NCBI RefSeq assembly: GCF_000149955.1
Contig: NW_017264846.1
Location: 436,265-500,264, forward strand
Direction of reading: 5' to 3'
DNA from: Fusarium oxysporum f. sp. lycopersici 4287
Lineage: Eukaryota; Ascomycota; Sordariomycetes; Hypocreales; Nectriaceae
DNA length: 64,000 nt
A model generated the notes under the pieces. It ran no database searches. It saw nothing but the letters and a program-made list of their open reading frames with translations, and was not told the DNA's origin. Shown one piece after another: positions 14,012 to 61,160 of the stretch (position 1 is its first letter; every line of letters begins with the position of its first letter). Both the position numbers and the translations under genes were made by a program.

Positions 14012-14561
14012 AAGCTTATACCAGAGTCGCGGCACACGATTGAAATTTGAAGTGCAGGTGATGACTACTCGACCAACAGCACGGCGTGTCGGCTAACCCT
14101 GACCCTAAATAAATAGAAATGGAATTTTAGGTCAAATGGTCATTTTTTACGCTCATTGCTCCAGTTTGGCTGAAGAAGTGATTAAGTGAAACTGGGCATT
14201 TGTATGAGGAAGATCTGTTTTTGGTGTACAAGAGGTGGTACTTACGGGAAGTGGGTATTGCATGGTAATAACGTTAGATATTATGTAGTTTAGTCTGCCA
14301 TGATGTATTCCATAACCATGACACAGGAGACCGGCCCCCTGCGGGTTCCGCCAATGCCGTTGAGGAACGAGCTGAGTCCTAGACGCGGCGCAAAGGCGCT
14401 TACGGCTCCGACCCCGCTTTCGACAGCATTGCTATTTCATGCTTGCGTTTCTACCATTTCTATCTCATCTGCCCATCTATCCATCTACGTGTTCTTCAAG
14501 AGTATCATCGAATATCATCGAATTGCATTACGAATTGCATTGAAGTATAAAGTTGTTTACC
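14012..14561. other. Intergenic; PAD 3' side and promoter of the next gene
   Basis: No supported gene. A TATA-like run, AGTATAAAG, at about 14545 lies close to the next start codon. The 90-codon frame 14300-14572 overlaps this promoter and has no recognisable feature. Confidence 0.35.
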
Positions 14562-15200
14562 ATGACCATTGATTACTCAAAATGGGACAACCTGGACACA
14601 GATTCAGAAAGAGAAACTCCCCCTCCAGCAGCACTACAATCAAGTGCGCCGGCTACAGCAGATCCAATCACAGGCAGCACTCCGGGATCCATCCAAGCCA
14701 TCACTGTCCGTTGCGATGGTGAGAGAGTCAGATTCGCACCTTGGTCAGTGACATCGGTCAAGGCGGATCACCCCATCTTCTCGAACTTCGTGCCTCCTAT
14801 CCCGCGACTCATCGAGGTTCCATTAGTCTTTCATCGGGTCGGCAGTCAATCTGCAGACCGGGCCGATCTGGATAATCAGGTCATCACATATCTCCATATT
14901 GACTCCGAATCCGGGTTCGCGCCTCCGAGCTGGCAGTCCCACATCGGCACGGTGCTGGTGGCGCGAAAGGATCAGAAGACGTTGCGACCACAGCATCTGG
15001 AGGGTGTATGGATGTATTGTGATCACATCTTGGATCTCTTCGGAGATGGAGAAGGTGCACCGACGCATATGTATCGTAGACAAGCATTTGAGGAGTGGTG
15101 GAAAGACTACTGCAAAGAGCAGAAGAAATTACGGCGGGGAACTGGAGGCAAGAATGACCCGGATGACTGGCGAGCGGTACAGTCGCCGTATGTGACATAG
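14562..15200 (+). CDS. Conserved-looking fungal protein of unknown function (212 aa)
   Basis: ATG 14562 opens MTIDYSKWDNLDTDSE, an acidic start; the frame extends upstream but only to non-ATG codons. It has a proline/alanine-rich stretch (residues about 20-50), then a compact globular-looking part with VRFAPWSV, HPIFSNFVPPIPRLIEVPL, a segment containing HIDSESGFAPPSWQSHIG, and EGVWMYCDHILDLFGDGEG; the C-terminus is charged. No signal peptide, membrane segment or known catalytic motif. I believe similar proteins occur across Pezizomycotina as hypotheticals but cannot name a domain. It ends only 42 bp from the end of the Helitron 1 helicase frame, tail to tail, so it is either the host gene next to the insertion site or Helitron cargo. 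Confidence 0.6.
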   Translation: MTIDYSKWDNLDTDSERETPPPAALQSSAPATADPITGSTPGSIQAITVRCDGERVRFAPWSVTSVKADHPIFSNFVPPIPRLIEVPLVFHRVGSQSADRADLDNQVITYLHIDSESGFAPPSWQSHIGTVLVARKDQKTLRPQHLEGVWMYCDHILDLFGDGEGAPTHMYRRQAFEEWWKDYCKEQKKLRRGTGGKNDPDDWRAVQSPYVT

Positions 15201-15242
15201 GTTCCTCGTATGTGCTGGTATAAGTATATCTCGCGCGCTGTT

Positions 15243-17640
15243 CTACGTGAAGCATTGCTGGCTTTCAAACGATCGTCTTGTTTCTACCGCTAGATCCGCA
15301 AGTCTCTTCATGGCGTCAACGATGACCTGGTCTGGCTTGTTGCCGAGGAAGTCCTGCGGCCGCACTATATTTAGCAGTTTGATGCCCTGTAGTGTCTTGC
15401 ACCTAGAAAGTTGTACATAGAGACTAGTGAAGTCGCACTTCGAGGGCTGACCATTTGTCACGCGATTTCCTCGGAGCTCTAAAAGAACATCGGCAAACGT
15501 TTTCCCTTGGGCCTTATAGTCGGTCAGTACGAAGGCAGGGACCACAGGCAGTCCGCGTCGGGTGCATTTCCCGGATAGGAACTTGTAACAGGAGTTGGCT
15601 GGATCGAGTACATGCGTGATGGGCCGGATGAGTAAGGTACCCGCTGGGAGTGTCGGGATGGTTATATCTTTTGTCTCTTGTGACTCCAACAATATGCCTA
15701 GTGGCGGACCGAAGTGTATGGTAACATCGTCAGCGAGATAATGGCCTGGGAAGTTTGGGTCGGGGATGAGGTCCACGGCCGTAAACTCGGCCCCGTTCAC
15801 AACTCTCAGGCCGGTATAGGTATTTTTGTTGACAACAACAGGCATGCCCTGGGCGTAGAAGAATACTCCTGGGATCTTACAGCTGGAGCTGTCGCCTTGC
15901 TCGATGGTCTGGGCTAGCTCCTGCTGTAAAAAGGTCCGGCTGCGCCAGGTGTGTGTCGAGATGAAGATGGAGATATGCTTTGCGTGAAAGCGGGCCCAAT
16001 CTACCAGGGCTTCCATATTGAGAGCCCATCTGTTACGGTTGAGCGGTGTTATGGCACGCAAGCCAGCCTTGAAGGTGATCTGGGACCGGTCCACGAGCCT
16101 GGTGTTGAGCAGGTCAAAGTCCTCCCTAGTCTGGGTTCCGGCCCGTACTCTTTCCAAGAGAGCGCCCAGCTGTGGATCGTCCCGGGCGCGGACTTGCTCC
16201 TCGAGAAGGATGACGGTCTTGAACATCAGCCACAGGTTATGACCACGATGGTGAGCAATGGTTGCCTGTCCCGAAGAGGTCGTGTAAGTCGGACTCATCA
16301 TCTGGTCCACCAGGAGACTTTTCTCAAGCACAGGGGCGAACTGATAGAAATCACCCATCAGGAGGACGACGGGAATACCGCCAAACGGCTTATCGGGGCA
16401 GTCGCGGAGGGCCTGGAGGCGACAGTTGGCCTGGAATAAAGTGGACCCCCCGAGCATGCTGACTTCGTCAATCACAAGTACCAACTTCTGCTTCCACCTC
16501 CATTTCTTCGCTTCCGAGAAGACTGGAGGCTCTCTTCTGTCGTTAGAATGGTGAATATCCAGTCCACAAGCCGAATGAAATGTCGTCCCGCCGATCTGAG
16601 CAGCCGCACTGCCGGACGTGCCGGTCACCTGGAGTTGATGCAGCTGGCCTCTAGCCACAAATACGTTCCGCAAAGCATCGACGATCCTGGACTTCCCAGT
16701 ACCGCCTGGGCCACCAACGTATTGAAGGTTCTGACCGGCAGAGTCTGGATGGTCGACGTACTTGTCCAAGAACCGACAAATAAGCTGTAGCGCCATACTC
16801 TGCAAACCGTTGAGTGTATACGCGGAGGCGGCCTGAAGTCCCAGCTCCGTGAAACCTCCGACGGGACCCAGTTCAACAAGCATTCGAGGATTCTGTGCCT
16901 GCGAGGTTTCCAAATGTCTCGGAATGGGAATGTCTGCATCGCATTGTCGAACAAGCAGATCGTCAATGTTAGCGTTCCCAATGGAGGTTGTGCCACCTTG
17001 CACAACACCCTCCATCTCGTTGAGCATCTGTAGATGCAGCAGATCCTGGGCCTTCGCCGCAGCCTGAACGTCATCGGCAGAAGGAACGGAGCATTGGCTT
17101 AAGACGCTGTGTTGACGATGGCGAATTTGCTGATAGAAATCGTCGTGACGTTGGATAAAAGGGCGGCGCTCTTCTATCGGGTTCTCCCGGTCAAGGTCTC
17201 GGATCAGACCTTGCAAGACCGGAGAGTCCTTTGTTGCGTCGGAATTGCGTACAGCATTTTGGAGAGTGCGGAAGAGGGCCTTATAGTTTTGGTAATGCTC
17301 TGCCATGGTCGGCTCTTCCATGGTCGGCTCATCATCACAGTTGCTTTCACCCAGGGGGAATTCTACGTCTACCGTGTCATCGCCTTCCGACCGGTTGGCC
17401 CAAAGCCGAGCATCCTTACGAGCATCCTCAGCCGACTTTCTGAGAAGAGAGATATTCGCGACGTGGGATCCCAAGCGAGGACACAGGTTAGCTGCGAAAC
17501 TTTGCCATATGCCTGTGATATCGGGGTGGGTTTCGGAGAGGAATTTCTCCCATGGTACGAACAAGGCTAGATGGAGAACCGAATTCCTACACAGACTATC
17601 AGGGCAGCTTCGGGGGCGAGTGAACCAGGCAGGGAAAGAT
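15243..17640 (-). CDS. Helitron 1 Pif1-like helicase domain (C-terminal half of RepHel)
   Basis: Open frame from 17753 to 15243 (836 aa); roughly its first 50 residues overlap the Rep frame out of phase and are probably not real. The real homology begins near LALFVPWEKFLSETHPDI. Superfamily 1B Pif1 motifs are in order: Walker A GPGGTGKS (residues 348-355), Walker B VLVIDEVSMLGG (about 425-436), GDFYQFAP, and late motifs including FVLTDYKAQGKTF near the C-terminus. The helicase unwinds the transposon strand during rolling-circle transposition and normally is fused behind the Rep nuclease. Here the Rep frame (17567-21358) continues past this start in another frame, so a one-step frameshift or an unseen intron separates them. 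Motifs look intact. Confidence 0.85.
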
Positions 17641-20600
17641 ACCGTTTGAAGTACACTGGGTGGTCGTCCATGTGATCGTCGCTGATGAACCCTTGAAAGA
17701 CTGGCACTGCGTATCCGGGGGGCTGACGAAGCTTTTGAATCCATTCGTGACATTCCGGGGGCCCCTGTAGCGCAATATGGACTTCATCCTCATCTCGACC
17801 ACGACGGCGCTCCACGATGATCGTGGACATATAGTCGTAGAGGCACGTATCTCTCAGAACTGGGCCGCGATAAGCATAGGCGTCCAGGTACAGCAAGGTC
17901 CGGCCGTTTCGCCGAAACTGCACTGTTTCCGATGGCTCTTCGGCGTCGATTTGCGTACAAGCCTGGCGACGGAGGTGTGGCCAGCGTCGGAAGATGGTCC
18001 AGTAAAGTGCTGTCAGGTTGATGTAGGACCAGTTTGGTACGTTAGTAAAGTCTGTTTGATAGCCGAGCAGAAAGTAGCAGACCTCTACGGCCGAAAGCTG
18101 CCTCTCAGAGAAAATTCGGTTCGCTGCCCTCATCAAAAACTGGCGGCTCTCATTCACCACGTCCTGACGCTGGGCATCTTGCTCGGGAAGACTTGGCCCC
18201 CCCAGCGACGCGGATTCACGGAGCTGCCGAAGAACATCAGATGCAAAGACGAGGCGTTTCCACATGGGCGTGTCTAATTTGGTGGCATAATTTGTGATGT
18301 AGAATACCATGGCCAATCCCTTCGTCTTAGTCAAGATCATAGAGAGGTCATGATTGTGGCGGAGGCCGACCGCCATTGCTTTGTTGTACCGGTTGACGAG
18401 CGCATGGTTCCGCCTCATGCTGAGCAGACCGTCCTCCGTGAACCCGGTGTTCTCGACGAGCTTCCAAGGGGCTTTGAACCGACAAGCCGTCGTTCTGTGT
18501 TGACCTGCGCCCTCTATAGCGAGTGCTTTCAGAGAATACTTGATACAGGTGTACGTATGCGAGTGCACCTGGCAACAGTAGGCAATGAAGTTGGACTCGT
18601 TGTCGAAAGCCCCTGAGAGAGTCACAGTGTTGTTCATGATCTCGTCAATCGGGTCGATTGGCTTTCTCTCCTTGCGGACGGCCCTTCCAGCTTCCTCATC
18701 CAGACATTCGTTAAATACAGAGTCCAGATAGCGAACCACTTGAGCACGGTATTCTCCCTCCTCATTTTTCGTCATATCGTCGATCAAGGAAGGCAACTCC
18801 ATATTACCCTCCAACCAGAGTAGACCATGCAGGTGGAGACTACCTCGGTCGTTCGTCTCAACTGTTGCGTAGTAATGGCTGATCTTCCCGTAAACTGATT
18901 CCTGGCCTGTCTTGACATATTTCTCAAAGAACAAGGAGACCTCTCGATGGAAGAAGATGGCAGCGCTGACCGGATCCATAATGCTAAGAGAAATTCTATC
19001 ATATCTCCCACGGAGATCAATCAGAAGCTCCTTGGCTGCATCGCGATCATGAAGTCTGTGAATGGAGAGTTTCAACTTGACCGGATTGTTGATATCATTG
19101 GGATTGACAGTAATCCAGATGGCAGGTATACCTGTCCAGATGTTCAATGACTGTATCTTCCTCCGCATCAAGAGCCGGGTTTCGTTGGAGAGCGGCTGCG
19201 CGTGGCCAAATATGGACAGTTCGTGGAGCAAGAACAAGATATCCGGATCGGTCGTGGTCTTGGTGTCCTGCATTTCCTCCTGTGCTATTTTCAAGCGGTC
19301 CATCGTCAGGCGTCTACAGACCCGGTCCAGTCTGTCGAAGGAGCCCTTTACCAGACGGACCATGCTGATTCTTCGGTTCGTGGATCGCAGGAGGATATTG
19401 AAGACCAAGAAACAAAAGATTGGGTGGACGGCAAACCGGCCCCTGTGCCGCTGCAACACGTACTTGGTCCAGTAGTTGAGCGAATGGTTGGTGCCACTCT
19501 GTGCGGAGCCCAAGGCGCCACGTGGATCGCCGTCTGGCAGACTGGGGCCCTTCGGGCCGCCCCTGCCCCAAGGGAAAAGTTTCGGAAAGGTTCGCGGGAA
19601 GAAATCCTCGTGTAGGCTGTCAGCGAAATCCGCGCCACGCTCGACCCGGATGAATGGCTGGTCACCCGCCGTATGGACCATCATACCGACGGGTTCGGCG
19701 TCATCATCGTGTCCGCCCGGACTCGTCCGCAAAGCCTCAGCTAAGAAGGACAGCTTGTCAGCTTCAGCGAATGTAGCAGGTCCGTCTAGAGGAAACATGC
19801 CGGACGCCGAGGTCTCGCACAGGGTATCATCGCCGTGGTGAACACTCCCTGGGTCAGGGGCAGATGTAAGTAGATCCTCAGGCGATTGGTGGGACTGTTC
19901 CACCAACTCGCTGTCGCCCGGTGGTGAGGCATCGTCGCTGGCATCTGGTTGCATGGACGCGAGAAGCTCTTTAATGCTAGCGAAACCGGTCCCCTCTAAT
20001 CCGCGATCAACATTTGGGACGATGGGGTCTGTGTGTGTCTTTTCCACGGCTGAGGGTTCCTCTCTTCGCATGCGCTCCATGAGAACGGCGGGAACGGCCG
20101 AGCCCTCGGCATACTGCCAGCCATGTATCTCATCCAGGTTAATCTCGATACCCCTATAGAGGGGATTGTTCTTCTGCAGCCACAAGAGAGCAGCAGTCGC
20201 CCGAGACTTTCGCACCTGAAGAAGGGACCCCACTTCCGCCTGATTGGGTCTCTTGGCACCACTCCAAGAGACATGGATGTTCTCGATCGTCCGAAGAAGC
20301 GGGTGAGGCAGCACTGTGGTGACCAAGTCGTCTACGTTATTCGGAAACACGACAATATGGCCCTTGATGTGCTTCCTGTAACTCGCACTCGACGGCGTCT
20401 TGTTATCAACAGTGAACTTCGTGATATAGCCAAAGGGGGCCTGGAGAGCGATCAGCCTCTCCTCGAGAGGAGAGAGGCCGTCGAGTTCTTTGGGATAACG
20501 ATGCTCACATCCTATATTCATGTTGTTGACGGAGCATGCCTTTGGCAGCTTCCCACGGTCGAAGCTACCGCGGCATTCGAGGCAAACATCGACCTGAGCG

Positions 20601-21358
20601 TCACCTGTCAGTGGCAGACACTTTTGGCACTCTTGAAGAGCCACTGTGGCTCGTAGGAGCGAGGAGGGCAAGTCCCTCCTCCACTGGATGGTAGTCATGT
20701 TGGCTGGCGCGCATTTTCTGTAACAGAAGGTGCAATGGGAAATAGGCAGTGTCCTCTCGTCTGCAAAAGCTGCATGGAACGATCTCGAAGTCTCGACTTG
20801 AAGGGCGAGCGGGACTTCCTTACACCAGGATCTCCTTAGCGATACGTCTTCCTTCACGCGAAAGCAGGAGTCCCGGTGTTGAAGAATTCTGTCAAGAGAC
20901 AGTTGCTGATGTTGAGTAACCTCGTGCAGTAGTTTCGGCCTCTTCCGGCGGCTTCGGTCTCGGTCCGAGGGTGTCGGGGCCGGAAGTACGTCTTGCTGTA
21001 TGCTATGCCGCTTGAGGGAAGGCGGAGTCCGGAGAGGAGAGGCTGGCTCAGGAGTCGTCGGTCCGGTAGCAACCCGCGTATGGACCCATCCACTGCGCCT
21101 GCGAGCCTGGTGGGGCCGATAGGGTCCGGGTCCACCGGTCCGACGTTCGGCGCGTCTACGGTCCAGGTCGTCCGATACACGGATGATTTCCTCGAAGGGC
21201 ATTCTGAGCTTCGTGTTTCGGAGCTCCGACTCCATGACCCGCTGCGGCCGGGTGGTCCGCCGGGTGCGAGCCGTTGTATCAGTGTGCTGCCGATCTAGCC
21301 TCTCCAGAGTTTGGCGGACATCTTCTATCGGAAGGGGAGTCCGTCCTGGTGGAGGCAT
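17567..21358 (-). CDS. Helitron 1 Rep protein (DUF6570 + Helitron_like_N, HUH nuclease)
   Basis: 1263-aa frame, ATG at 21358. In order: basic, disordered N-terminus (1-180); Cys-rich region with CTFCYRKC and CLECRGSFDRGK, followed by GCEHRYPKELDGLSPLEERL, typical of DUF6570 (about 205-420); acidic linker; Helitron_like_N starting near FPRTFPKLFPWGRGGP (about 587-602). The HUH motif is HLHGLLW (842-848), and the two catalytic tyrosines are Tyr1020 and Tyr1024 in FYITNYATKL. These residues nick and re-join DNA in rolling-circle transposition. The C-terminus runs past the conserved region in a frame different from the helicase. Its start faces that of the companion gene across about 680 bp. Confidence 0.88.
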   Translation of the reverse strand: MPPPGRTPLPIEDVRQTLERLDRQHTDTTARTRRTTRPQRVMESELRNTKLRMPFEEIIRVSDDLDRRRAERRTGGPGPYRPHQARRRSGWVHTRVATGPTTPEPASPLRTPPSLKRHSIQQDVLPAPTPSDRDRSRRKRPKLLHEVTQHQQLSLDRILQHRDSCFRVKEDVSLRRSWCKEVPLALQVETSRSFHAAFADERTLPISHCTFCYRKCAPANMTTIQWRRDLPSSLLRATVALQECQKCLPLTGDAQVDVCLECRGSFDRGKLPKACSVNNMNIGCEHRYPKELDGLSPLEERLIALQAPFGYITKFTVDNKTPSSASYRKHIKGHIVVFPNNVDDLVTTVLPHPLLRTIENIHVSWSGAKRPNQAEVGSLLQVRKSRATAALLWLQKNNPLYRGIEINLDEIHGWQYAEGSAVPAVLMERMRREEPSAVEKTHTDPIVPNVDRGLEGTGFASIKELLASMQPDASDDASPPGDSELVEQSHQSPEDLLTSAPDPGSVHHGDDTLCETSASGMFPLDGPATFAEADKLSFLAEALRTSPGGHDDDAEPVGMMVHTAGDQPFIRVERGADFADSLHEDFFPRTFPKLFPWGRGGPKGPSLPDGDPRGALGSAQSGTNHSLNYWTKYVLQRHRGRFAVHPIFCFLVFNILLRSTNRRISMVRLVKGSFDRLDRVCRRLTMDRLKIAQEEMQDTKTTTDPDILFLLHELSIFGHAQPLSNETRLLMRRKIQSLNIWTGIPAIWITVNPNDINNPVKLKLSIHRLHDRDAAKELLIDLRGRYDRISLSIMDPVSAAIFFHREVSLFFEKYVKTGQESVYGKISHYYATVETNDRGSLHLHGLLWLEGNMELPSLIDDMTKNEEGEYRAQVVRYLDSVFNECLDEEAGRAVRKERKPIDPIDEIMNNTVTLSGAFDNESNFIAYCCQVHSHTYTCIKYSLKALAIEGAGQHRTTACRFKAPWKLVENTGFTEDGLLSMRRNHALVNRYNKAMAVGLRHNHDLSMILTKTKGLAMVFYITNYATKLDTPMWKRLVFASDVLRQLRESASLGGPSLPEQDAQRQDVVNESRQFLMRAANRIFSERQLSAVEVCYFLLGYQTDFTNVPNWSYINLTALYWTIFRRWPHLRRQACTQIDAEEPSETVQFRRNGRTLLYLDAYAYRGPVLRDTCLYDYMSTIIVERRRGRDEDEVHIALQGPPECHEWIQKLRQPPGYAVPVFQGFISDDHMDDHPVYFKRYLSLPGSLAPEAALIVCVGIRFSI

Positions 21359-22036
21359 GATCCGAGTAAAAGTAACACGGACTATTATGTAGAAAGGATG
21401 AGACCTTGGATGTAAAAAGAGGAAACACCACCCTCAATCGACGCAGATGTCGAGAGGGCGAAATAAGGCATTTGCCATCCCATCAATAGACTTTGAGAGA
21501 GAGGAGCAGAGACCTGAAGGAAGGGACTAACCCGCTGCGCAGCGGTAGTTTAGGTCCACGGAGTAGAAGCTTTGAAGCTTTCCGTAGGTGGCAACTTCGG
21601 AGAGGGTGCCAGAGGGGCGCTTCAAGATTACAACCACTCGAACCATGCGACAGAAATATCGCATGACGTTCAGACCGTCGATAACCGGCATGGAGGTTGC
21701 GCTCAAAGATGTTACGCTTGGCAGGTGACCGCATCTCGTAGTCAGCGGCGTCCAGCTGGCGCCAACAGTGTTGGTGTGAGTGGGATAATAAAAAGCAATA
21801 TACAGAAGGGCTGACGGGCGATGGCATCATGAATCGCTCGAGACCAGAGAAAATTGTGCGGGGTGAAGGTTTTTGGAGCAGACCCTGGACAAAGTTCGGA
21901 ACTGTTTTCCCGTCGGAATGTGGGGACCATTTGCGTATAAGAAGTCGAGCTCATCTCACGAAAGATCCAGAGATGATTCTGACAGACTACTTTCTCATCA
22001 AAACACTGTTGCGTGCCATGCAAGATTCAATCCCTG
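21359..22036. promoter_or_regulatory. Divergent region between Helitron 1 RepHel and its companion gene
   Basis: Head-to-head spacer of about 680 bp. It holds only overlapping short frames without motifs. Probably carries promoters for both directions; no TATA box was confidently picked. Helitron 2 has an equivalent spacer (52963-53562). Confidence 0.4.
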
Positions 22037-23279
22037 ATGCCTCAAGGTCTAGGTTCCAGTAACGGGCAATCAAGGGCTCGTTTGTCGGGAGCGGCGCCAG
22101 GGCAGCCAGCTCTAAGCCCCCTGGGAGTGCAATTCTTCTCCAGCCTCGAAGGCTTAGAGATAGCTTCATCCACCGACCGGCAGCTTATCCGCGGGCACAA
22201 TCTGATCGGTGCGGTCCGGCTGCAATTCGTCAAGGCGAGCTTCTTTGACGGAGGAGCAGGGGAGCACGGAGAGGTGCTCGATGAGATCGATGGAATCGAC
22301 GTGCCACTCTCCATGCACGTGTACCCCTTCCCCCAAGCAGATGAGTGGGAAAACCAGTGGTTCTTCTTCGACATCCAGCTCCATCCGTATCAGCTATATT
22401 TCCGCCGTAGAGTCGAGGACGGTGAGGAGTCCATTATTGGAGGATGGGAAGACTCATATGCCAAGTTGGCCCAGGTTCGTGGACAGATGTGTGTTCAAGC
22501 GTATGTCGATGCCCTGTTTGAAAGCACCAATGTAGCAGAGACACAGGCCCATAAGTCAGAGGTCAGAATACTAACCGACACATCTTTTTAGCATCTCGAT
22601 AAGGCCTCTCAGGCTTGCCAATGACTGCCTCCCGACCATAGCACCGCGCGCTACCTTCCACGGACCTGTCGACACCACGGCGTTCCGTTTCAAGGCTGGA
22701 TCGTTGAGTAACAATCAGCTAAAATGCTGCGGCTTCATCCAATGCAGCACCTATCTCGTACCACCCCGTGACAAGGACCCGACATTCAGAGGCGGCCAGA
22801 TGTTTCACATTCTAGCATACATGCCACACGATCAACAGCCCTGGAAAAGCCGGGTCGATTGGATGAAGGGCTTGCCTGAGGGCGGATTCGCATCTGGGAA
22901 GTGGATGTACGGAAGAGGCAGCATCGTTGGTGTCCTGAACCCGGCACTGTTACAGGAGGAGCTTCAACCTGGGCAAGATATCCTAGTTGTGCTCGTAGAC
23001 GAGTTCAGCTTCACATCGAAGGCGACGCTCGAGGGCGCTACTGTGATGAGGAAGGCGTCCTCTCCACAGAAAGCAAAAGTCGACCTGGCAAAAAGACGAA
23101 ACCCTTTCAGCAGCAGTCCGGACAACTCGCCACCCAAGCGCGCAAAAGATCCTTCTTCGACCAGGGGCATGAATGGTACAGGGAAAGAAATCAGGGACGG
23201 TGCATATATGCCTGTCGACCCGCGGCTCCAACAGGAACTAGCGGGCCACGAGAGGGATTCAATCTTGGTAGCAGGTTAG
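22037..23279 (+). CDS. Helitron companion protein 1 (possible OB-like fold)
   Basis: Two exons, 22037-22500 and 22592-23279, with a 91-nt intron: donor GTATGT at 22501, branch-like ACTAAC, acceptor TTTTTAG. Phase 2 joining keeps the frame. An in-frame ATG at 22013 is possible. Predicted about 383 aa. It is homologous to the companion of Helitron 2 (51769-52962): EWENQWFFFDIQLHPYQLYF versus DWEGKWFTIVARIFPNKLTF; FHGPVDTTAFRFK versus LAGPVDLDTFHIK; STYLVPPRDK versus GSYLVPENDR; QQPWKSRVDWM versus QQPWHSLLGWM; GSIVGVLNPALLQ versus GRVLGVLNRDLIQ. The last block, alternating beta-like strands around G-x-V-x-G-V-L, could be an OB fold, but this is inferred. The C-terminus is basic with an NLS-like PPKRAK. 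It is divergent from the Rep gene. A ssDNA-binding partner role, like plant Helitron RPA genes, is a hypothesis. Confidence 0.7.
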
Positions 23280-23367
23280 CATTCGACATGTCACCGCAAA
23301 GCGTTGTGCGGAGTAGAGCTAAGCACCAGACTAATACAGAAACGGAGACTTCACAGAGTCCGAGCCA

Positions 23368-23754
23368 ATGAGACAAGATACATTCGCACCACCAGCCGAA
23401 CGGGAAGGGCAACTCATGAAGCTACCACCGGAGGGCACCACGTACTCTTCTTTTCACGAAATGAGACAAGAGCTCGTTGAGTTCGCCAGATCACAAAGCT
23501 ACGGTATTCGTATCTGTCGATCATTCCAAAAATTCTCAAGAATCACAGGAGACCCGGTCGCGAAGAAGAGAATGGTTTGGCAGTGTAACCGTGGAGGGAA
23601 GGGAGACTGTCCATTTTCATTCAACGCCGTGGAGGTCAAAATAGGAAGCGACCGGTGGGAAATAAGATATAAGAAGAACGAAAGCCAGCATGTTCATAAC
23701 CATGGACCAAGCGGTGGATTTGTCATATGCCCTGAGCAAAAAGTGCGGAAATGA
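23368..23754 (+). CDS. FAR1/WRKY-GCM1-type zinc-finger protein, small
   Basis: 128 aa, ATG 23368, 88 bp after the companion stop. The pattern is that of the FAR1/WRKY-GCM1 DNA-binding fold: MRQELVEFARSQSYGIRICRS (phenylalanine/aromatic core), then R-x-V-W-Q-C-N-R-G-G-K, DCPFSFNAVEV, and HVHNHGPSGG, giving Cys, Cys and His-x-His ligands. Such domains sit at the N-terminus of Mutator-like transposases and some regulators; here nothing follows it, so it is either a free-standing DNA-binding protein or a remnant of a Mutator-like gene. Helitron 2 has no equivalent, so it may be cargo or simply flanking sequence. A homopolymer T tract follows at about 23832-23846. Confidence 0.6.
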   Translation: MRQDTFAPPAEREGQLMKLPPEGTTYSSFHEMRQELVEFARSQSYGIRICRSFQKFSRITGDPVAKKRMVWQCNRGGKGDCPFSFNAVEVKIGSDRWEIRYKKNESQHVHNHGPSGGFVICPEQKVRK

Positions 23755-23991
23755 TCCACGAAGAATTGACTCCTGTAGGACCATGATTTGGTGTCGGCAT
23801 GAAAATCACAGCTCTTGTCCTCAATCGCTGGTTTTTTTTTTTTTTCTTTCTTTATGTGTCACATGACCAGGTTCAAGTAGACGTATTAAGTAACGGGTCC
23901 TTGGTTAGCAAAAAAGGAAGAAAAGAAAATCGGCAAACGTCACTAAGAATGTCGTAGGACAAACCAATGTCTTGCTGACTGGATTACCCTG
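23755..23991. other. Short spacer between the zinc-finger ORF and MITE
   Basis: Contains a T15 homopolymer (about 23832-23846). The 5' end of Helitron 1 may lie here, but no terminal signal was recognised. Confidence 0.3.
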
Positions 23992-24280
23992 TATCTCTTT
24001 GAGTGGCAGAAGGCAACAAAACGGTCAAGACAGGGATAATTCAGCCAATACAGGATCAGCTTGTATACAAAAGACCAATAACCAATAAGAACAAGTATAA
24101 AAAGCTAATAGCCAGTTAAAGTCAGGAAAAAAGAGGCTATACTCTTATAGAAGTAGCTAAGCTACAAAGAAGTACAGGCTCTAATAGCTGCTTTTACATA
24201 TAAAGCCTTTGTAGCCTTCTGGTACGTGGGGTCAAGTGGGTCAAGTGACCTTTTGTTGCCTTGTGCCACTCAAAGAGATA
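23992..24280. mobile_element. MITE with 30-bp terminal inverted repeats, related to the one at 4031
   Basis: Left end 23992-24021 and right end 24251-24280 are reverse complements with one mismatch in 30. The element is 289 bp, non-coding and AT-rich inside, with terminal TA at each side. The outer sequence TATCTCTTTGAGTGGCA shares its first 11 bases and several later ones with the MITE at 4031-4226. Confidence 0.85.
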
Positions 24281-24542
24281 CACATCCAGCTGGGGCCCCA
24301 GTTTTTTCCCCCCCAGGTTTTTTTTTTTTTTTTCGGTGGTTCTTGCTGTTTGATTCCTGTGGCGCGAAGGTGATTGTGGCGCAGAAATTGTGGTGAAGCT
24401 GGCTAGCACGGACCACTCCGCGATCCGTGCTCGGGTAAGCAGGGCGAGGAAGAAAGAACCTTTTCGTTCCTCAAAGGCAAAAAAAAAAAAAAATAATAAG
24501 AGTGAAATAATATTCATATTTCGTTTTAGAATTAAGTGGATT
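24281..24542. other. Spacer with homopolymer runs
   Basis: Contains a T15-type tract near 24319 and an A15-type tract near 24480. These face each other about 160 bp apart. No gene. Confidence 0.3.
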
Positions 24543-50034: not shown

Positions 50035-51503
50035 AGCCTCAAGCCCTCTCATGTCCCAATTCAGAAGTGATGCTAGGCGTGGGTGAGCCCATGATATATT
50101 CTGGCTACGGCGACGAATCTATGCGGTCATGAACCCTAACGACTCTCGACTCTGTAGTATTATCCGTTGGCTCATGCGGGGCAAGCCCCGGGGAGCCAAC
50201 TAAGCTAGCTTAGTCGGCCCCTAACGTGTGCGACATCCACGGGGCCCGAATTTTGGTGATTTGTGGTATTTTTGATCTTCAGGCCCTTGTGAGATGTCTA
50301 CGCACGTGGATCCAAGACAGAATTAGTAAGTTGAGGCTTCTCGTAATGACGGTTTGACTATTAACTATCTGTGAGCTAGGGAGGTGACCAGGCTGGTGAA
50401 TCTATCTACCAATGTAGATGAAATGTAGATGTAGATAGTTGTAAATCTATATCTATCCATCTACCGAATGACATGCGGGTCATCTAGCGATCTGCCGGGA
50501 GGTGCGGTACTTAGACGAAGTGTTGATAGATGCCAAGGCCGCTGGTAAGATTAGGGGAGGTAGTTGTACTTTCCGGTATTAATGGCATCCTCCTGTACAG
50601 AAGTATCGGTACTCCCACAATCCCTTCCCCAACCGTCCCCTTACTACCATTCCCCGCCACTTAAAGCATAGCACAAAAAATCACCGCTCCATACAAATCC
50701 TACCATTTTATTTGCACCGTATTTTAGCATAATGAAGCCATTCGCGAAAGAAAAAACTGTAGTGTATTACTGGAGGGACCGGTCCGGCAAGCGGCCCGCC
50801 AAAGGAAGCCTGGAGGAACTGTGCTAGCGTGATGAAGCTGGTGAAGAAGGGCTGCTTGTAGGTATTATCAGTAAGATGGTGGATTTTGTTGAATAGGTGC
50901 TGGGGCCTCACGTGCAAGCAGGGATACTTTAAGATTACAGCCGAAATGGTAAAACCTCTAAGGGGCAGATTTCAACAAAACACAACATGAATACACACCA
51001 ATTCACATCAATGAACCGAATACACGTAATGTCCAACAGATTTAAGGTGTTACGATGACCTGGGTCGAGACCAGGCGGTCACCCGTGGCAGAACCCTGGG
51101 CCCCATTTTTAACGGGAACTGTCAAAGCTGTTGCGCGCGACTTCAGCGGATCGGAGCACCACTCCAACGGATCACCAGTGATTCATGGGAATCATCAGCG
51201 ATTCCTATGGCACCCCCTCCAATCCAGTCGAGAACCATAGATATATATACACTCATTTTCACTCTTCAGTAGTAAGTCCAGTGTAACGCACTTAGTATAT
51301 AAGACATTCATTTAGCACTTTCCTAGATAGATAGTGTGACAGCTATCAATGTACAATTTTACTATTACTACATCATGACTTATAATGCTTAATATAACGT
51401 CATAATCCATTAGATTATACACTCCTAAGTCTGGGACCTACTGTAGATATAGGTTAGACCCGACCATCACAGAAAGGTTATGTTTTTAGTCAATACCGGC
51501 AAT
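50035..51503. other. Intergenic with a structured dyad element
   Basis: No gene. Holds the palindromes described separately (50169-50224) and a TCTA/TAGA-rich low-complexity stretch around 50400-50465. Toward 51503 it approaches the end of the Helitron 2 companion; Helitron termini were not found. Confidence 0.35.
50169..50224. repeat. Hairpin and 16-bp perfect palindrome
   Basis: CGGGGCAAGCCCCG forms a 6-bp stem around AA, framed by GGCTC and GAGCC. Directly after it ACTAAGCTAGCTTAGT (50199-50214) is a perfect palindrome, extended by GCC/GGC on either side across one mismatched pair. The two structures are adjacent in about 55 bp of non-coding DNA. Could be a transposon end, a binding site or a terminator-like structure; undecided. 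Confidence 0.5.
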
Positions 51504-51768
51504 CTAGTCATATAACTGTGCCCTCCTTTTTCTTGCTGTGGTTCTCTTGCTTCGTATTGGCTCAGGAGTGCTTTGTTGCTTCCTCTTACGTGTGGGAGTA
51601 GGGGAAGTAGGATCGAGTTGGTCATCCAACATTTGCTTTGTGTCTGAACCATTTTCCGTACAATCGCTATCTGAATCGCCAGTTAGCTCAAGGAAGAGGT
51701 TTAGAAGGGACAAGCCATACCCGAACTTGGAATTGGAAGCACTGGATTAACGTCAATTGTGGTTGGAG

Positions 51769-52962
51769 TCAGTGGTGTATGCTTTCCTCTAGGGCAGGCT
51801 GGTGGTTTGGTCGCCTCGCAATCTGACTGCTTTGATGGCAGTGTCGGGGAAGCAGCTTTCCTTTGCGGAGACTGCTTTTGACCGCGGATTGGAGACGAGA
51901 ATGGGTTTCTGCTTGCAACGCCCCAGGGCCAGCTGGTCGTGGTGGCGTAGGCGACTCATTGACAGGATTCGACGATGTGGGCATGTATGTATTATGTGTA
52001 GACAGGGTACTCTGTCGAACGAATTCCCAATCGTCGGGGAGAATTACTAAGATCCGGACGGTGGAATCGACGACTTGAGGGCCTTGGATAAGGTCGCGGT
52101 TAAGGACCCCCAAGACGCGACCGCTGCATACAATCCACGACCCTTTAGGAAAGGGGTTCACAGCTTGTCGCATCCACCCGAGTAGAGAATGCCATGGTTG
52201 TTGCTCTACGGGGAAGAGGAGGAGGACGTGGCATACGTGTACGCCTTTGTGAGGAGGGCGGTCGTTTTCTGGCACTAAGTAAGAACCTAGCTTTATGAAC
52301 ACCGAAGTCTTGCTCAGTGGCTCTGGCCAGACATCCTCCTTGATATGGAAGGTATCTAGATCGACAGGGCCGGCAAGGGATATATGTGCTGAAGAGTTTG
52401 GCCAGGGGGCACTTTCATCGCTACCATCGAGGAGTCGAGGGACAATACTGTGGGGTTGTAAGCATCGATAACTGGTATGAATACGACGTGAGAGGACGTA
52501 CGGAGTCAAGCCGCCATCACGCGGTAGTGCCAGCGCAACCTGCACAGATTCAGTTTCTTCTGTCTCCCATCCATCCAAACTTACGCCATGGAAGGTAAGT
52601 TTGTTTGGAAAAATTCGGGCGACTATAGTGAACCATTTCCCCTCCCAGTCCTCCTCCAAGGTCGCTGTTCTTGCTCCGGCGTTAAACATGGAGAGTAGCA
52701 AAGGAAGTCCTGAGATCTCGCCATCTTCAGGACTGAGGAGGCACGGATAGAGGTCGAGAATGAATGCAGGCTGAATAAAAGGCAGGAAGGTCCCAGCCTT
52801 GAAGTTCCCTGCATTCGTATAGCGTGAGCCAGCTGGGAGGATTTCGCACTGGGCTAGGTCGGAATGGTAGGTGATGATGAGATCCGCACCGATCGCTCCC
52901 TGCCCACGCTTATTTGGCAATGGAGGTATCGGGCAAATGACAGAGGCCGAGGAAGTCGTCAT
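51769..52962 (-). CDS. Helitron companion protein 2 (possible OB-like fold)
   Basis: 397 aa from ATG 52962 (MTTSSASVICPIPPLPNKRG), no intron needed. Colinear with the companion of Helitron 1 over most of its length: DWEGKWFTIVARIFPNKLTF, LAGPVDLDTFHIK, GSYLVPENDR, CHVLLLFPVEQQPWHSLLGW, and GRVLGVLNRDLIQ followed by RILVILPDDWEFV. The last part alternates short hydrophobic strands with turns, compatible with an OB fold, an inference. The C-terminal part is basic and low in complexity. Just downstream, another frame (51713-51504) encodes an acidic-then-basic tail with TPTRKRKQQ, which could be a lost or spliced C-terminal extension. It is head-to-head with the Rep gene (about 600 bp to ATG 53563). 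Role unknown; ssDNA binding during Helitron movement is the hypothesis. Confidence 0.7.
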   Translation of the reverse strand: MTTSSASVICPIPPLPNKRGQGAIGADLIITYHSDLAQCEILPAGSRYTNAGNFKAGTFLPFIQPAFILDLYPCLLSPEDGEISGLPLLLSMFNAGARTATLEEDWEGKWFTIVARIFPNKLTFHGVSLDGWETEETESVQVALALPRDGGLTPYVLSRRIHTSYRCLQPHSIVPRLLDGSDESAPWPNSSAHISLAGPVDLDTFHIKEDVWPEPLSKTSVFIKLGSYLVPENDRPPHKGVHVCHVLLLFPVEQQPWHSLLGWMRQAVNPFPKGSWIVCSGRVLGVLNRDLIQGPQVVDSTVRILVILPDDWEFVRQSTLSTHNTYMPTSSNPVNESPTPPRPAGPGALQAETHSRLQSAVKSSLRKGKLLPRHCHQSSQIARRPNHQPALEESIHH

Positions 52963-53562
52963 ATTAGTGGCAATAGAATTATATGCAGTATCATAAGTGA
53001 AATAAGTTTAGGAGAGATAAGGGCAAAGGAGATGAGGGTGTTAAGTCCCCCTCTTTGAAAAATGGTGGCTTGCTATGTAGATATATACTGATTTTAGTAA
53101 TGCTCTGACCCTGACGTCAATGTAGCATACTGCTACACTAAGCTAGGTTCTGAAGTATAGCCCGTACGGTATATTGCCACAAAGTATCAGTTGACAGACT
53201 TAGTAGTGTGTTGCACCTGAAAGCTAGGATATCCTGGGTTGTAAAGAGGGGTTAATGAGGGGGTAATAATCTGAGGCATCGGCAGAAGTGATAAAGTTTG
53301 AGGGAGATCTCGGCAGAAACAACAGATAGCTGTAAATGTGATAACAGTGATTGGAGCTTGTAACCCTACGTAAGATGGGTTTGGAAAGGGGATCCATGCT
53401 ATGGGTCTGTCGCTCTGCTCTTCTAGGCCTCCTCGCATGCTTCTCCTATCCAGAGAAAGAGTCAGTTTTAAGAAACCTATAGAGTCACCAACAAAGGGCT
53501 TACCAACGTCATATATCGCTATACGGCAATATTTGAATAGGAACCTCGATAAGTACTTCAGC
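52963..53562. promoter_or_regulatory. Divergent region between companion 2 and Rep 2
   Basis: About 600 bp if Rep starts at 53563. The Rep frame is open from 53401, but the added residues look non-conserved. Should carry both promoters; a TATA-like TATATAC lies near 53085. Position corresponds to 21359-22036 of Helitron 1. Confidence 0.4.
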
Positions 53563-56500
53563 ATGGCTGAATCACATGATTATTCTTCTTTCCTACCCAC
53601 TCCACCACAGACACAACTGCCTAGTCAGCAGCAGCAGACGAGAACAGGACCTCAAAGTGACGAGAGTCGGGCCATACGGGAAGCAGCGCGGCAGCGGCTG
53701 CAAGAGCAAAGGCGACGCGAGCGGGAGGCGATAAGATATCAGCAGCAGACAGTGAGGTGGGTGCAGGAGGAAGAGCGCCGCCGCCAACGAGTGGAGAAAC
53801 GAGCGGAGATAATTCGGCAGCGGGAAGAAGAACGCCGCCGCCAACAAGAGGAGAGGATACGACAGCAGGAACTAGAAAGAGAACGCCACCCACAAGCTGA
53901 AGAGAGAAGACAGTGGCTGGAGAGACACCGTCGGCGTCAAGAGGAGGAGGCTCGACGTCGAGAGGAGCTGGCGTCGCGCACGAGAAAGCGCCGTCGACGA
54001 GCTAGGGAGGCGAGACAGGAGCTGGATTTACCAAACCCGGAGTATGAATCCTTCTTGGGGCACCCGAGGTCTCTTAAGCGCGCGAAGACTGATAATAACC
54101 AAAGACGTCGTCAGCCACGGCAAGATGGACCTTCGGGTACCATACCGGCCCAACAGGCAGCTCCTCCTGACCTGATGTCCATGGAGATGATTATGCGGCA
54201 CAAAGAAGCGCTACGCAGGCTGATGCAACCAGTAGAGCAATCCTTCCAAGAGAAGCAAGCGGCCTCGAATCGCCGTGACTGGTGCAACCCTGTGCCTGCA
54301 AATCGTAAGATCGACACAGTCCAGTCCTTTCTGAAAGCCTTCCACGATGAAGGCAGCATGGAGATAGCAGTATGCTCGGTTTGCTATCTACAGAAGAAGC
54401 CACGGGACCTAGATCATGTCGACTGGGAAAGGGCGTTGCCTGACGAGATTCGTTCAGCGATGACCAACTTACTGGCGTGTAAGAGATGCTTCCCGGAGGG
54501 AGATGGCGAGACTGTAGTGCCGATATGCTTTTCCTGTCGAGCGGCTTTCGACCGAGGCAGAGTCCCGGAGGCATGCATGGGGAGCACGATGCTCATCGGC
54601 TGCGAGCATCGGTATCCAAAGGAGCTGAAAGACCTTACCCCTCTCGAGGAGAAGCTGATCTCTTTCAATGTGGCATATGGGTTCATCACTAAGTTTAACA
54701 TCCAACGTGGCCAGCTAACCGGCCCGACATATCGGAAGCACGTCGCGGGTCACATCACGGTGTTCCCCAACGACGTGGAGTCTTTGGCTGCCACAATCCT
54801 GCCGCACCCACTTGTGTCGACACTGGAGCAGGTGCATGTGATTTGGACCGGCTTAGAGCGGCCCACGCCTCGAGATGTGAGTAAACTGCTCAGCGTTCGA
54901 CCTGGTGCCATCCGCACAACGTTACAGTGGCTGCGAGCAAACAACCCTCTTTACGTCGACATTGTGATCAATGAAGAGGAGATGGAAAGTTGGGATTTTG
55001 AAGGCGGCAGCGATGTGCCAACACAGGCCTACCAACGCATGGTGAGGGAAGAAGAGACTGCAGAAGAGCTTATACGGACAGCACAGATCGTGCCTCCAAC
55101 TGATCGAGGGCAGGACACTCCTGGTCAATCGTCATCGGTCGAGGACATTGCGATAGAGCTGGCAGAAAAGTCTAAGTGTAACCCTGGACAATCTGAGCCT
55201 GCGCCGCATGGCGTACAGCAACCCCCTAGCTTGGAGGAGGCGACGGCCGAGGAAACGTCAGAGCGGGCGTTTGAGCTGCGCTCCTCGGCGATGTTCCCGA
55301 TCGACGAGCAGGCTGCCTTCGCAGAGCAGGACAAGCTAGATTTCATCAGTATAGCCCTGCAGGCAGAGCGCCAATTCGACGATAGGTACGAAGGTGTTGC
55401 AGGCGAGGCCCCGTCGATGCAGGTTCATGGCTCCTCAGGTCGTCCGTTCATCCGGGTATCACATGGTCGCGAGTTCGCGGACGGCTTTTCTCCAGACTAT
55501 TTCCCAAAAACCTTCCCTACCTGCTTCCCTTATGGCCACGGCGGACCACGAGCGGCGGACCGGAACGAGGTGGGAGATCCAGCAAATCCCCTGATACGAG
55601 ATATGACCCTGGAGTCTTGGGCCAAAGTCGTTCTGCAGCGGCACGGCGGGCATTGCGCCCAACACCCTGCCTTCTCCTTCCTTGTATTCAATATGATGGT
55701 CAGGTCTCGGAACCGGTGGATTGCCCAGGGCCGCCTGAAGCGGTCGGCGTTTCGGCGTGTCGAGGGAATACACCAGAGGCTGACGCCCGAGCGCTTGCGC
55801 GAAGCACAAAAGGAGATGTTTGAGATGGGAAAGACCACAGACAGGGACGTTATCGCACTTATGAAGGAACTCTCGCTCTACGGTAGCCGGCATCCTTTAT
55901 CAAATGAGAGCCGCCTATCAATGCGGAAGAAGATATGGTCGATGATAGTGGCATTTAGCCTCACAGCCATCTGGTTTACCCTAAATCCCAATGATATCAA
56001 CAACCCGGTGAAGCTGAAGCTCGCGGCGCATAGGGGACGGGATGATGAGGCCGCTAGAGCGTTGCTTCGTGCTCTAAGCACATCGCTGCAGGTGACAACC
56101 CTCTCGGTCCACGACCCTCTCAGCTCAACGCTCTTCTTCTTCCGCGAGATCTCTCTTTTTTTCGAGCATTACGTTCGCGTCGGGCGACCGTCTGTTTATG
56201 GGAACGTGAGCCATTATTATGCAACCGTAGAGACCAACGACCGCGGGGCTCTTCACCTACACGGCCTCCTATGGTTACATGGCAACCTGGCCCTATCGGA
56301 TCTCGTCCGCCACATGGCCGATCCTGATGAGGGAGAATACCGGTCGAAGGTCAAGAGCTTCGTAGACGATATATTTACTGCGACCCTGAACGAGGCCTTG
56401 GCGAAGGAGGTGGTAGAGTGCGGCAAGAAGACTACTGTAGTCGAGCCTGAGCTGATACACGACGCGGAGTGGTTATCGAGGGCGTTTAAGCGTGAGGCCA

Positions 56501-57447
56501 ACTTTATTGCATCTCGCTGCCAGGTCCACCACCATACTGCTACGTGTGTCAAGTACTCTATTAAGGAAGTTTTGAAGGCGGGCCTGGCAAAGTGTAGAAC
56601 GCAGCTATGCCGTTTCCGGGCTCCTTGGAGACTTGTGCTGGAGACCGGCTTTACAGACGACGGCCTGCTCGAAGTGAAGAGAGATCATCATATGGTCAAT
56701 CAGTATAACCAGAGCATGGCCATAGGGCTACGGCACAACCATGATGTATCAATGATTCTTACGCGAAAAAAAGGGCTGGCACTCATACACTACATCTGCA
56801 ACTATACTACGAAGCTTAACGCTCCTATGTGGAAGCGGCTCGCCCTTGCCGCAGAGTTATTGGACCTGGCCCGGCAACAGCAAGGGGGACCAGGCAATCA
56901 AGGCACGACGTTGGCATCGACGTCGACGTCGACGATAGGAGATGAAACTAAATCGTTTTTACTACGCATCGCAAACCGGATTTTCACGAGCAGAGAGCTC
57001 TCACAGCCTGAGGTGCTTGGCTATCTGCTGGGCTTCGGGACCGACTTCACAAATGTTCCTGCTTGGACCTGGGTGCATATCAATTCCTTGTACTGGGCCT
57101 GTGCCAAACAGTGGCCGGGTTTAAAGGAAGCACTGTTGGCACTTGGTCGAGACCCGCAACCAGACAACATCTATTTTCAAACAGACGGCTTTAAGTTGCC
57201 CTATTTGGAAGCTTACAAACACCGGGGCCCAATTCTCCAAGAACTTTGCTTCTACGACTATATGTCCTTTGTGGTCTTGAAGAAGGAACGCTACCACTGG
57301 AGAGGTACGACACCCATTCCTTTTCCACCAACAGCAACAGTCTGTAAAGGCTGGGTCCAATGCCTTCGAACTCCAGGTAAAATGGCGGTGCCTGTGTTTG
57401 ATGGTCGTCTTACGGACGAGTTCGACGAAGGTTCCAGGAACAGCTAA
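53563..57447 (+). CDS. Helitron 2 Rep protein (DUF6570 + Helitron_like_N, HUH nuclease)
   Basis: Start chosen at ATG 53563 (MAESHDYSSFLPTPPQ); the frame is open from 53401. A long Arg/Glu/Gln-rich coiled-coil region is followed by the Cys-rich/DUF6570 part (CSVCYLQKK, CFSCRAAFDRGR, GCEHRYPKELKDLTPLEEKL), a linker, and Helitron_like_N beginning FPKTFPTCFPYGHGGPR. The HUH motif is HLHGLLWLHG (from nt 56254) and the tyrosine pair is in HYICNYTTKL (nt 56788-56817). Catalytic residues therefore look intact. The C-terminus ends MAVPVFDGRLTDEFDEGSR and stops at 57447, lacking the segment that in Helitron 1 leads into the helicase (YFKRYLSL to FVPWEKFL). Confidence 0.87.
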   Translation: MAESHDYSSFLPTPPQTQLPSQQQQTRTGPQSDESRAIREAARQRLQEQRRREREAIRYQQQTVRWVQEEERRRQRVEKRAEIIRQREEERRRQQEERIRQQELERERHPQAEERRQWLERHRRRQEEEARRREELASRTRKRRRRAREARQELDLPNPEYESFLGHPRSLKRAKTDNNQRRRQPRQDGPSGTIPAQQAAPPDLMSMEMIMRHKEALRRLMQPVEQSFQEKQAASNRRDWCNPVPANRKIDTVQSFLKAFHDEGSMEIAVCSVCYLQKKPRDLDHVDWERALPDEIRSAMTNLLACKRCFPEGDGETVVPICFSCRAAFDRGRVPEACMGSTMLIGCEHRYPKELKDLTPLEEKLISFNVAYGFITKFNIQRGQLTGPTYRKHVAGHITVFPNDVESLAATILPHPLVSTLEQVHVIWTGLERPTPRDVSKLLSVRPGAIRTTLQWLRANNPLYVDIVINEEEMESWDFEGGSDVPTQAYQRMVREEETAEELIRTAQIVPPTDRGQDTPGQSSSVEDIAIELAEKSKCNPGQSEPAPHGVQQPPSLEEATAEETSERAFELRSSAMFPIDEQAAFAEQDKLDFISIALQAERQFDDRYEGVAGEAPSMQVHGSSGRPFIRVSHGREFADGFSPDYFPKTFPTCFPYGHGGPRAADRNEVGDPANPLIRDMTLESWAKVVLQRHGGHCAQHPAFSFLVFNMMVRSRNRWIAQGRLKRSAFRRVEGIHQRLTPERLREAQKEMFEMGKTTDRDVIALMKELSLYGSRHPLSNESRLSMRKKIWSMIVAFSLTAIWFTLNPNDINNPVKLKLAAHRGRDDEAARALLRALSTSLQVTTLSVHDPLSSTLFFFREISLFFEHYVRVGRPSVYGNVSHYYATVETNDRGALHLHGLLWLHGNLALSDLVRHMADPDEGEYRSKVKSFVDDIFTATLNEALAKEVVECGKKTTVVEPELIHDAEWLSRAFKREANFIASRCQVHHHTATCVKYSIKEVLKAGLAKCRTQLCRFRAPWRLVLETGFTDDGLLEVKRDHHMVNQYNQSMAIGLRHNHDVSMILTRKKGLALIHYICNYTTKLNAPMWKRLALAAELLDLARQQQGGPGNQGTTLASTSTSTIGDETKSFLLRIANRIFTSRELSQPEVLGYLLGFGTDFTNVPAWTWVHINSLYWACAKQWPGLKEALLALGRDPQPDNIYFQTDGFKLPYLEAYKHRGPILQELCFYDYMSFVVLKKERYHWRGTTPIPFPPTATVCKGWVQCLRTPGKMAVPVFDGRLTDEFDEGSRNS

Positions 57448-57485
57448 GCGACCGAGTTCGCTCCTACGTCCATAACATCACTCTA

Positions 57486-61076: not shown

Positions 61077-61160
61077 GCAGTCCGCACGAGCGAGAATCAA
61101 GGACATATCTGAAATACTTGGCGAAGAGGATCGAGCAATCAATATTAGATAGGGCGACAA
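61077..61160 (+). repeat. Short Helitron-derived fragment
   Basis: GCAGTCCGCACGAGCGAGAA and the following bases, including GGCGAAGAGG and GAGCAATCAATAT, resemble nt 57670-57765 of the Helitron 2 helicase gene with a small deletion. Same orientation as Helitron 2. Too short to delimit well. Confidence 0.4.

What the first reader, a model, noticed from the sequence alone, without database searches (positions are those of the whole stretch)
22037..23279. Helitron companion protein conserved in two diverged Helitrons
Helitron 1 and Helitron 2 each carry, head-to-head with Rep, a gene for a protein of about 385-397 aa. The two proteins share a chain of colinear motifs (for example HGPVDTTAF/AGPVDLDTF, QQPWKSRVDWM/QQPWHSLLGWM, GSIVGVLN/GRVLGVLN). 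Conservation of gene, orientation and position in elements whose other proteins have diverged argues for a role in the Helitron life cycle rather than chance capture. The C-terminal half has a strand pattern that could be an OB fold, which would parallel the RPA-like genes of plant Helitrons. Homology is seen in the sequence; fold and role are inferred.
Basis: partly seen in the sequence, partly recalled or inferred. Interest (0 to 1): 0.85.

Follow-up and report, generated by a model that had tools for sequence, protein, structure and literature searches.

The report
Helitron companion: predicted single-strand DNA binder
Two diverged jumping genes of a fungus carry, beside their replication gene, the same otherwise uncharacterised gene, whose predicted shape resembles bacterial proteins that coat single-stranded DNA, so these elements may bring their own helper for copying themselves.

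Summary
Helitrons H1 (14323-24479) and H2 (50769-61460) each carry a gene head-to-head with RepHel. The proteins are homologous along their length (26% identity; 0 of 2000 shuffles as good) and share an inferred intron of the same phase at the matching place, also in a third Helitron lineage. Of 19 matching loci in the genome, 13 lie divergently beside a Rep; the other 6 are fragments. Eight of 33 matches run across H2's joined flanks, five at full length, so the companion sits inside the mobile unit. Homologs occur in many Sordariomycetes. The best model of a comp2-family relative predicts two tandem OB folds; the nearest solved structures are SSBs of Thermus and Deinococcus, not RPA. Confidence is moderate: mean pLDDT 52, one good model of five, weak N-half, failed comp1-family model, no sequence link to SSB or RPA. 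A 2016 paper already noted such an ORF in one F. oxysporum subgroup, without function. Best reading: an element-encoded ssDNA-binding accessory protein, a new variant of a known kind.

The parts
14323..24479 (-). Helitron 1 (H1) unit: 5' TGCCT at 24479, 16-bp asymmetric inverted repeat 24464-24479/14355-14370, 3' CTCCTGT at 14329-14323
   Evidence: the repeat is 1 of 66 pairs found there; the case rests on its match to the FoHeli3-5 signature of PMC5148889; no empty site among the 40 scored of 87 candidates
15243..21358 (-). H1 RepHel in two overlapping open frames (17567-21358 DUF6570+Helitron_like_N; 15243-17753 PIF1)
22037..22500 (+). comp1 exon 1
22501..22591 (+). comp1 intron 1 (inferred), phase 2, at the place shared with comp2 and comp3
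22592..23274 (+). comp1 exon 2 (predicted second OB domain and tail with RNPFS motif); the unspliced frame stops at 23279
23348..23754 (+). comp1 probable exon 3 (intron 23275-23347, or to 23356): Cys/His-rich stretch C-x7-C-x26-H-x-H-x-H
   Evidence: present in gene models P0056, P0062 (part), P0064, P0078; no Pfam match
50769..61460 (-). Helitron 2 (H2) unit: 5' TGCCT at 61460, inverted repeat 61447-61460/50807-50820, 3' CTCCAGT at 50775-50769; Rep is inverted relative to the unit
   Evidence: repeat is 1 of 52 pairs; 8 of 33 matches cross the joined flanks, 5 over the full shared length; exact end bases not resolved
51769..52962 (-). comp2: exons 52962-52502 and 52447-51769, inferred intron 52501-52448 (54 bases, phase 2); tail frame differs from three other full copies
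53401..59816 (+). H2 RepHel (53401-57447 DUF6570+Helitron_like_N; 57486-59816 PIF1)

Best explanation
The gene is a resident gene of one group of fungal Helitron2-type elements (FoHeli3-5-like). It most likely encodes an accessory ssDNA-binding protein built of two tandem OB folds and a flexible tail. Shown: homology, fixed divergent place beside RepHel, location inside the mobile unit of H2. Inferred from sequence: a shared intron place, and constraint (a colinear protein kept at 26% identity). Predicted: the double-OB fold. Inferred: when Rep nicks the element and its PIF1-type helicase unwinds it, the companion coats the freed strand, keeping it from re-annealing, hairpins and nucleases until it is circularised or joined to the target. 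The shared upstream region would let companion and RepHel be expressed together. The tail, with its conserved RNPF[ST] motif, would contact RepHel or a host factor, as SSB tails do (recalled); in H1 a Cys/His-rich third exon may add sequence-specific DNA binding.
Against: The model is weak: mean pLDDT 51.9, pTM 0.53, the other four models 27.5-39.0; blocks 91-170 are only 36-61 and 211-220 is 36. Only 1 of 566 PDB matches reaches E 0.001, with TM-score 0.24/0.45 and rmsd 13.4 A; VIA rmsd is 4.6-6.2 A, and its seven top rows come from two bacterial genera plus one editosome protein. The comp1-family model failed (pLDDT 32.3) and its fold search found nothing. No sequence link to SSB: the profile comparison was not significant and a reversed control scored highest; nothing relevant in Pfam up to E 10 or in PDB sequences. 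The core is acidic (net -5 to -13 over 282-300 aa in 6 proteins), whereas 13 SSB OB domains of 89-115 aa range from -4 to +5. Codon-position identity comp1/comp2 (0.46/0.54/0.31; Rep 0.55/0.64/0.33) fits a coding sequence, but the alignment was made on protein, which builds part of that pattern in. At least 21 Rep loci of the other group, and 6 Rep loci of the same group, show no companion, so it is not needed by all Helitrons. No expression or binding data.
Confidence: 0.56

Rival explanations
1. The companion has OB folds but acts as a protein adaptor, for example tethering RepHel to a host factor or regulating its nicking, rather than coating ssDNA.
Against: The strongest fold matches are ssDNA-binding proteins; Helitrons elsewhere carry ssDNA-binding proteins (PMC4683698, passages).
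Confidence: 0.2
2. It is a sequence-specific DNA-binding protein or regulator of the divergent promoter or element ends; the basic tail and, in H1, the Cys/His exon are the active parts.
For: Cys/His-rich exon 3, 90% identical between the window and P0064 and 60% to Xylaria P0062 over the aligned part; net-positive tails (+1 to +10) in the 6 proteins measured.
Against: Exon 3 was matched in the genome only in the four H1 copies plus one weaker and four short matches, not in H2; in 4 of 157 homologs; no Pfam match.
Confidence: 0.1
3. The fold prediction is wrong and the protein is an accessory factor of an unrelated, so far undescribed fold.
For: Low model confidence, failed second model, no sequence relatives of known structure.
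Against: The C-terminal half (171-300) has block pLDDT 59-88 except one block at 36, and the two-OB SSB matches stand well above the rest.
Confidence: 0.11
4. A captured host gene that rides along without a role.
For: Helitrons capture genes (PMC4289320, passages).
Against: Three diverged lineages share place, orientation and intron place; no full-length copy away from a Rep was matched in this genome.
Confidence: 0.03

Closest known systems
Additional ORF of FoHeli3 (Chellapan et al. 2016, PMC5148889)
   Same: Upstream of the transposase gene, opposite orientation, no known domains, only in Helitrons (section 6); H1 fits that layout and the group's termini.
   Different: The paper gives no function or fold and calls FoHeli3 the only subgroup with such an ORF. 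Here H2, whose Rep is inverted as described for FoHeli4/5, and a third lineage also have it. Whether H1 is FoHeli3 itself was not checked (supplements not available).
RPA-like proteins of plant, fish, sea anemone and Drosophila Helitrons/Helentrons (PMC4683698 and PMC6431247, passages)
   Same: Element-carried, predicted OB-type ssDNA-binding protein.
   Different: No sequence match to RPA; layout nearer bacterial SSB; separate divergent gene; fungi. [quoted passage not shown]
SSB of Thermus/Deinococcus (2ihe, 1se8, 3udg; two OB folds per chain, recalled)
   Same: Predicted two OB folds in one chain followed by a flexible tail.
   Different: 8-12% identity in the structural alignments; no detectable SSB (PF00436) sequence signature; fungal transposon gene.

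Membership tests
FoHeli3-5 group (Helitron2 variant) | Rep (PF14214) and PIF1-type helicase | tested here: met
   both elements
FoHeli3-5 group (Helitron2 variant) | starts TGCCT, ends CTCCTGT, 13-16 bp asymmetric inverted repeat, about 9-11 kb | tested here: met
   H1: all, 10157 bp. H2: TGCCT, 14-bp repeat with one mismatch, 10692 bp, but 3' end CTCCAGT (one mismatch, so not exact); ends supported by junction-crossing matches
Helitron RPA-like proteins | sequence similarity to RPA OB domains | tested here: not met
   no Pfam match up to E 10 in any of 14 members except DUF3331 in one; none in PDB sequences
Helitron RPA-like proteins | RPA-type fold | tested here: inconclusive
   OB folds predicted, nearest rows are SSB-type
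SSB (PF00436) | SSB sequence profile | tested here: not met
   hhalign probability under 1% for N half, C half and both
SSB (PF00436) | OB fold(s) of SSB type | tested here: inconclusive
   matched in the P0002 model, a model of modest confidence; P0058 model failed
SSB (PF00436) | binds single-stranded DNA | not testable with these tools
   needs purified protein
FAR1/WRKY-GCM1 zinc finger (comp1 exon 3) | Pfam profile match | tested here: not met
   the resemblance is by eye and recalled

The most novel reading that the evidence does not exclude
A whole clade of fungal Helitron2-type elements encodes its own SSB: a two-OB protein of bacterial/organellar SSB layout, not RPA, made from a divergent gene next to RepHel and, in some lineages, fused to a Cys/His DNA-binding module. 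It would be a further independent gain of a single-strand binder by Helitrons (PMC4683698 counts at least three) and, as far as I know, the first by a non-RPA protein.
Probability: 0.4. Interest if true: 0.75.

Novelty: new variant of a known kind. Interest (0 to 1): 0.6.

Why it matters
Helitrons expose long single strands while they move, and it is unclear what protects them in lineages without RPA-like genes. A conserved companion with a predicted SSB-like fold gives a direct, testable candidate in fungi, and it would mean that unrelated Helitron lineages solved the same problem with different OB proteins. It also gives a second marker gene for finding autonomous elements of this group.

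Tried and rejected
Sequence link to known domains: Pfam for companions and relatives and PDB sequences: nothing relevant. SSB profile from E. coli and 12 phage SSBs against companion halves: not significant, a reversed control scored highest. Internal duplication of N and C halves by profile: none. The P0058 structure failed and its fold search was empty of OB proteins of note. RPA chains do not appear among the rows printed, which excludes nothing. Viral contigs: 20 pattern matches, none a relative. Companion queries P0071 and P0066 gave no new genome loci. Empty site for H1: no junction-crossing match among the 40 scored of 87 candidates. Companion remnants near other held Rep loci: none at E <= 1 among 60 loci, but those loci mostly do not reach the companion's expected place. 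Synonymous/nonsynonymous rates were not computed: copies in the genome are nearly identical or too diverged, and no relatives' DNA was available. Gene capture was considered and rejected because of shared place and intron.

Full report
What is there. The window is C70:436265-500264 of a 61.2-Mb genome in 71 contigs. From its size, its duplications and homolog names I take it to be Fusarium oxysporum; that is inference. Two large RepHel genes carry DUF6570, Helitron_like_N and PIF1 domains. Each has a divergent neighbour: comp1 at 22037 on the plus strand and comp2 at 51769-52962 on the minus strand.

Gene models. Comp1 splices at 22501-22591 into 383 aa. The window continues with a probable third exon at 23348-23754. 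Of the 157 homologs held, 4 contain it (P0056, P0062, P0064, P0078); 7 of the 40 comp1-search homologs end in [LV]AG, where comp1's unspliced frame stops, and others have different tails. The window exon is 99% identical to P0056, 90% to P0064 and 60% to Xylaria P0062 over the aligned part. By eye it holds C-x7-C-x26-H-x-H, resembling FAR1/WRKY-GCM1 fingers (recalled), but Pfam finds nothing, so this name is a lead only. Comp2's 397-aa ORF contains an unspliced 54-base intron; spliced, it equals P0002 for 329 residues and then leaves its frame. Three other full copies in the genome, and a fragment on C14, keep the other frame. The window copy may be damaged or misread there. All introns are inferred, without transcripts.

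Homology. Comp1 and comp2 align over 369 columns at 26% identity, E 2e-25, with no shuffle of 2000 near the real score. A third companion, comp3 (locus L018 and two near-identical copies), aligns along the length of the others. All three have a phase-2 intron at the same alignment place. Shared intron place and phase argue for common descent of the gene, not for separate captures. Codon positions fit a coding sequence (0.46/0.54/0.31 identity), but the alignment was made on protein, so that pattern is partly built in. No dN/dS was possible.

Is it a Helitron gene? H1 has the published FoHeli3-5 ends: TGCCT, a 16-bp inverted repeat and CTCCTGT 25 bases beyond it (signature from PMC5148889 section 6). 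The repeat alone would mean little (66 pairs were found in that stretch); the agreement of all three does. H2 has TGCCT and a 14-bp repeat with one mismatch, and one mismatch in the 3' end. Its boundaries are supported by related repeat copies: of 33 matches to the joined flanks, 8 cross the junction, 5 of them over query 97/99-408 at 83-89% identity; the exact end bases are not resolved. So comp2 lies inside the mobile unit. H1 gave no junction-crossing match among 40 scored of 87 candidates. H2's Rep is inverted relative to its ends, as the paper describes for FoHeli4/5, yet Rep and companion keep their head-to-head order: the pair behaves as a module.

Genome survey. Searches give 19 companion-matching loci (two further protein queries added none; only the best candidates are scored, so this is a lower bound). 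Of these, 13 lie divergently next to a Rep, with 1.6-4.3 kb between the matched parts; for one of the 13 the Rep evidence is a DUF6570 row, because no Helitron_like_N row lies there. The remaining 6 are a 3' fragment on C14 and five copies of one 68-aa fragment, all over 66 kb from a Rep. Many of the 13 are segmental duplicates; I count five lineages (comp1, comp2, comp3, C3:4991973, C3:5102150). By my arithmetic, 5 kb on one side of 64 Rep rows covers about 0.5% of the genome. Of the 63 Helitron_like_N rows, 30 were held as loci and compared with the H1 and H2 Reps: 21 are 22-28% identical (group I), 6 are 40-50% identical (same group as H1/H2), 3 gave no match. None of these 30 has a companion next to it; the 6 of the same group have short or interrupted open frames (364-648 aa). 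The remaining rows without companion were not classified.

Spread. Homology searches found 55, 40 and 118 proteins (157 distinct ids). A few are chimeric models, such as P0053 and P0054. Their genomic neighbours could not be seen.

Tail. After the core comes a variable, probably disordered tail with a conserved motif matching [RS][NS]P[FY][ST]. Of 40 proteins from the comp1 search, 30 had a recognised core end and at least 60 aa after it, and 26 of these hold the motif; of 114 others (grouped as comp2-type by the search that found them), 50 passed and 40 hold it. P0053-P0055 were left out, and close relatives are not independent. Comp3 lacks it. It may be a docking site.

How it most likely works. 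Rep nicks, the helicase unwinds, and the companion holds the freed strand. This is inference from the predicted fold and from the RPA-like genes of other Helitrons. [quoted passage not shown]

Known or new. PMC5148889 (sections 6, 13, 16 read; passages of others) already reports an upstream, oppositely oriented ORF without known domains in FoHeli3 and says FoHelis lack RPA-like genes. New here, as far as I could find: the same gene in an inverted-Rep element and a third lineage, the shared intron place, the wider family, the third exon, and the SSB-like fold prediction. Eight searches of the open library bear on this: (Helitron with OB-fold terms) found no paper; others (FoHeli, 3 papers; Helitron, SSB, fung; 8 papers) were seen as listings; some searches were wider and only their listed 20, 20, 14 and 15 papers were seen. 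None of the listed titles or abstract starts assigns such a function; the library lacks most subscription journals.

Verdict. It is a real, conserved accessory gene of one Helitron group, probably an ssDNA-binding protein of SSB-like rather than RPA type; biochemistry or a better structure is needed. On recheck I lowered the main confidence slightly (0.58 to 0.56) because of the weak N-terminal domain and the single significant Foldseek match.

Noticed in passing
window 1-64000: The H1 and H2 companion and Rep genes recur together on C3 (twice), C6 and C70 at about 29 kb spacing, nearly identical, so much of the window appears to be segmentally duplicated four times.
   Followed up: partly
window 12179-14011: A 610-aa ORF with a nearly full protein-arginine deiminase (PAD) domain, E 2e-129, just outside the H1 3' end; to my recollection unusual in a fungus.
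   Followed up: no
G000:C2:2187158-2187511: A 574-aa open frame with a 34% identical relative of comp1 exon 3; the Rep rows on that contig lie far away.
   Followed up: no
window 40746-43087: WD40-repeat ORF with about 3.9 copies of a 126-bp tandem unit (41099-41589) next to an NPHP3_N-type ORF: perhaps pieces of an NLR-like STAND protein.
   Followed up: no
window 6366-7520 and 26487-27743: Two DDE_1 transposase ORFs.
   Followed up: no
window 50561-50768 and 61461-61660: H2 sits in a dispersed repeat with five long uninterrupted copies on C6 (two), C14 and C15 (two) and three shorter ones.
   Followed up: partly
G000:C14:1382880-1383642: Companion 3' fragment without a Rep within 66 kb.
   Followed up: partly
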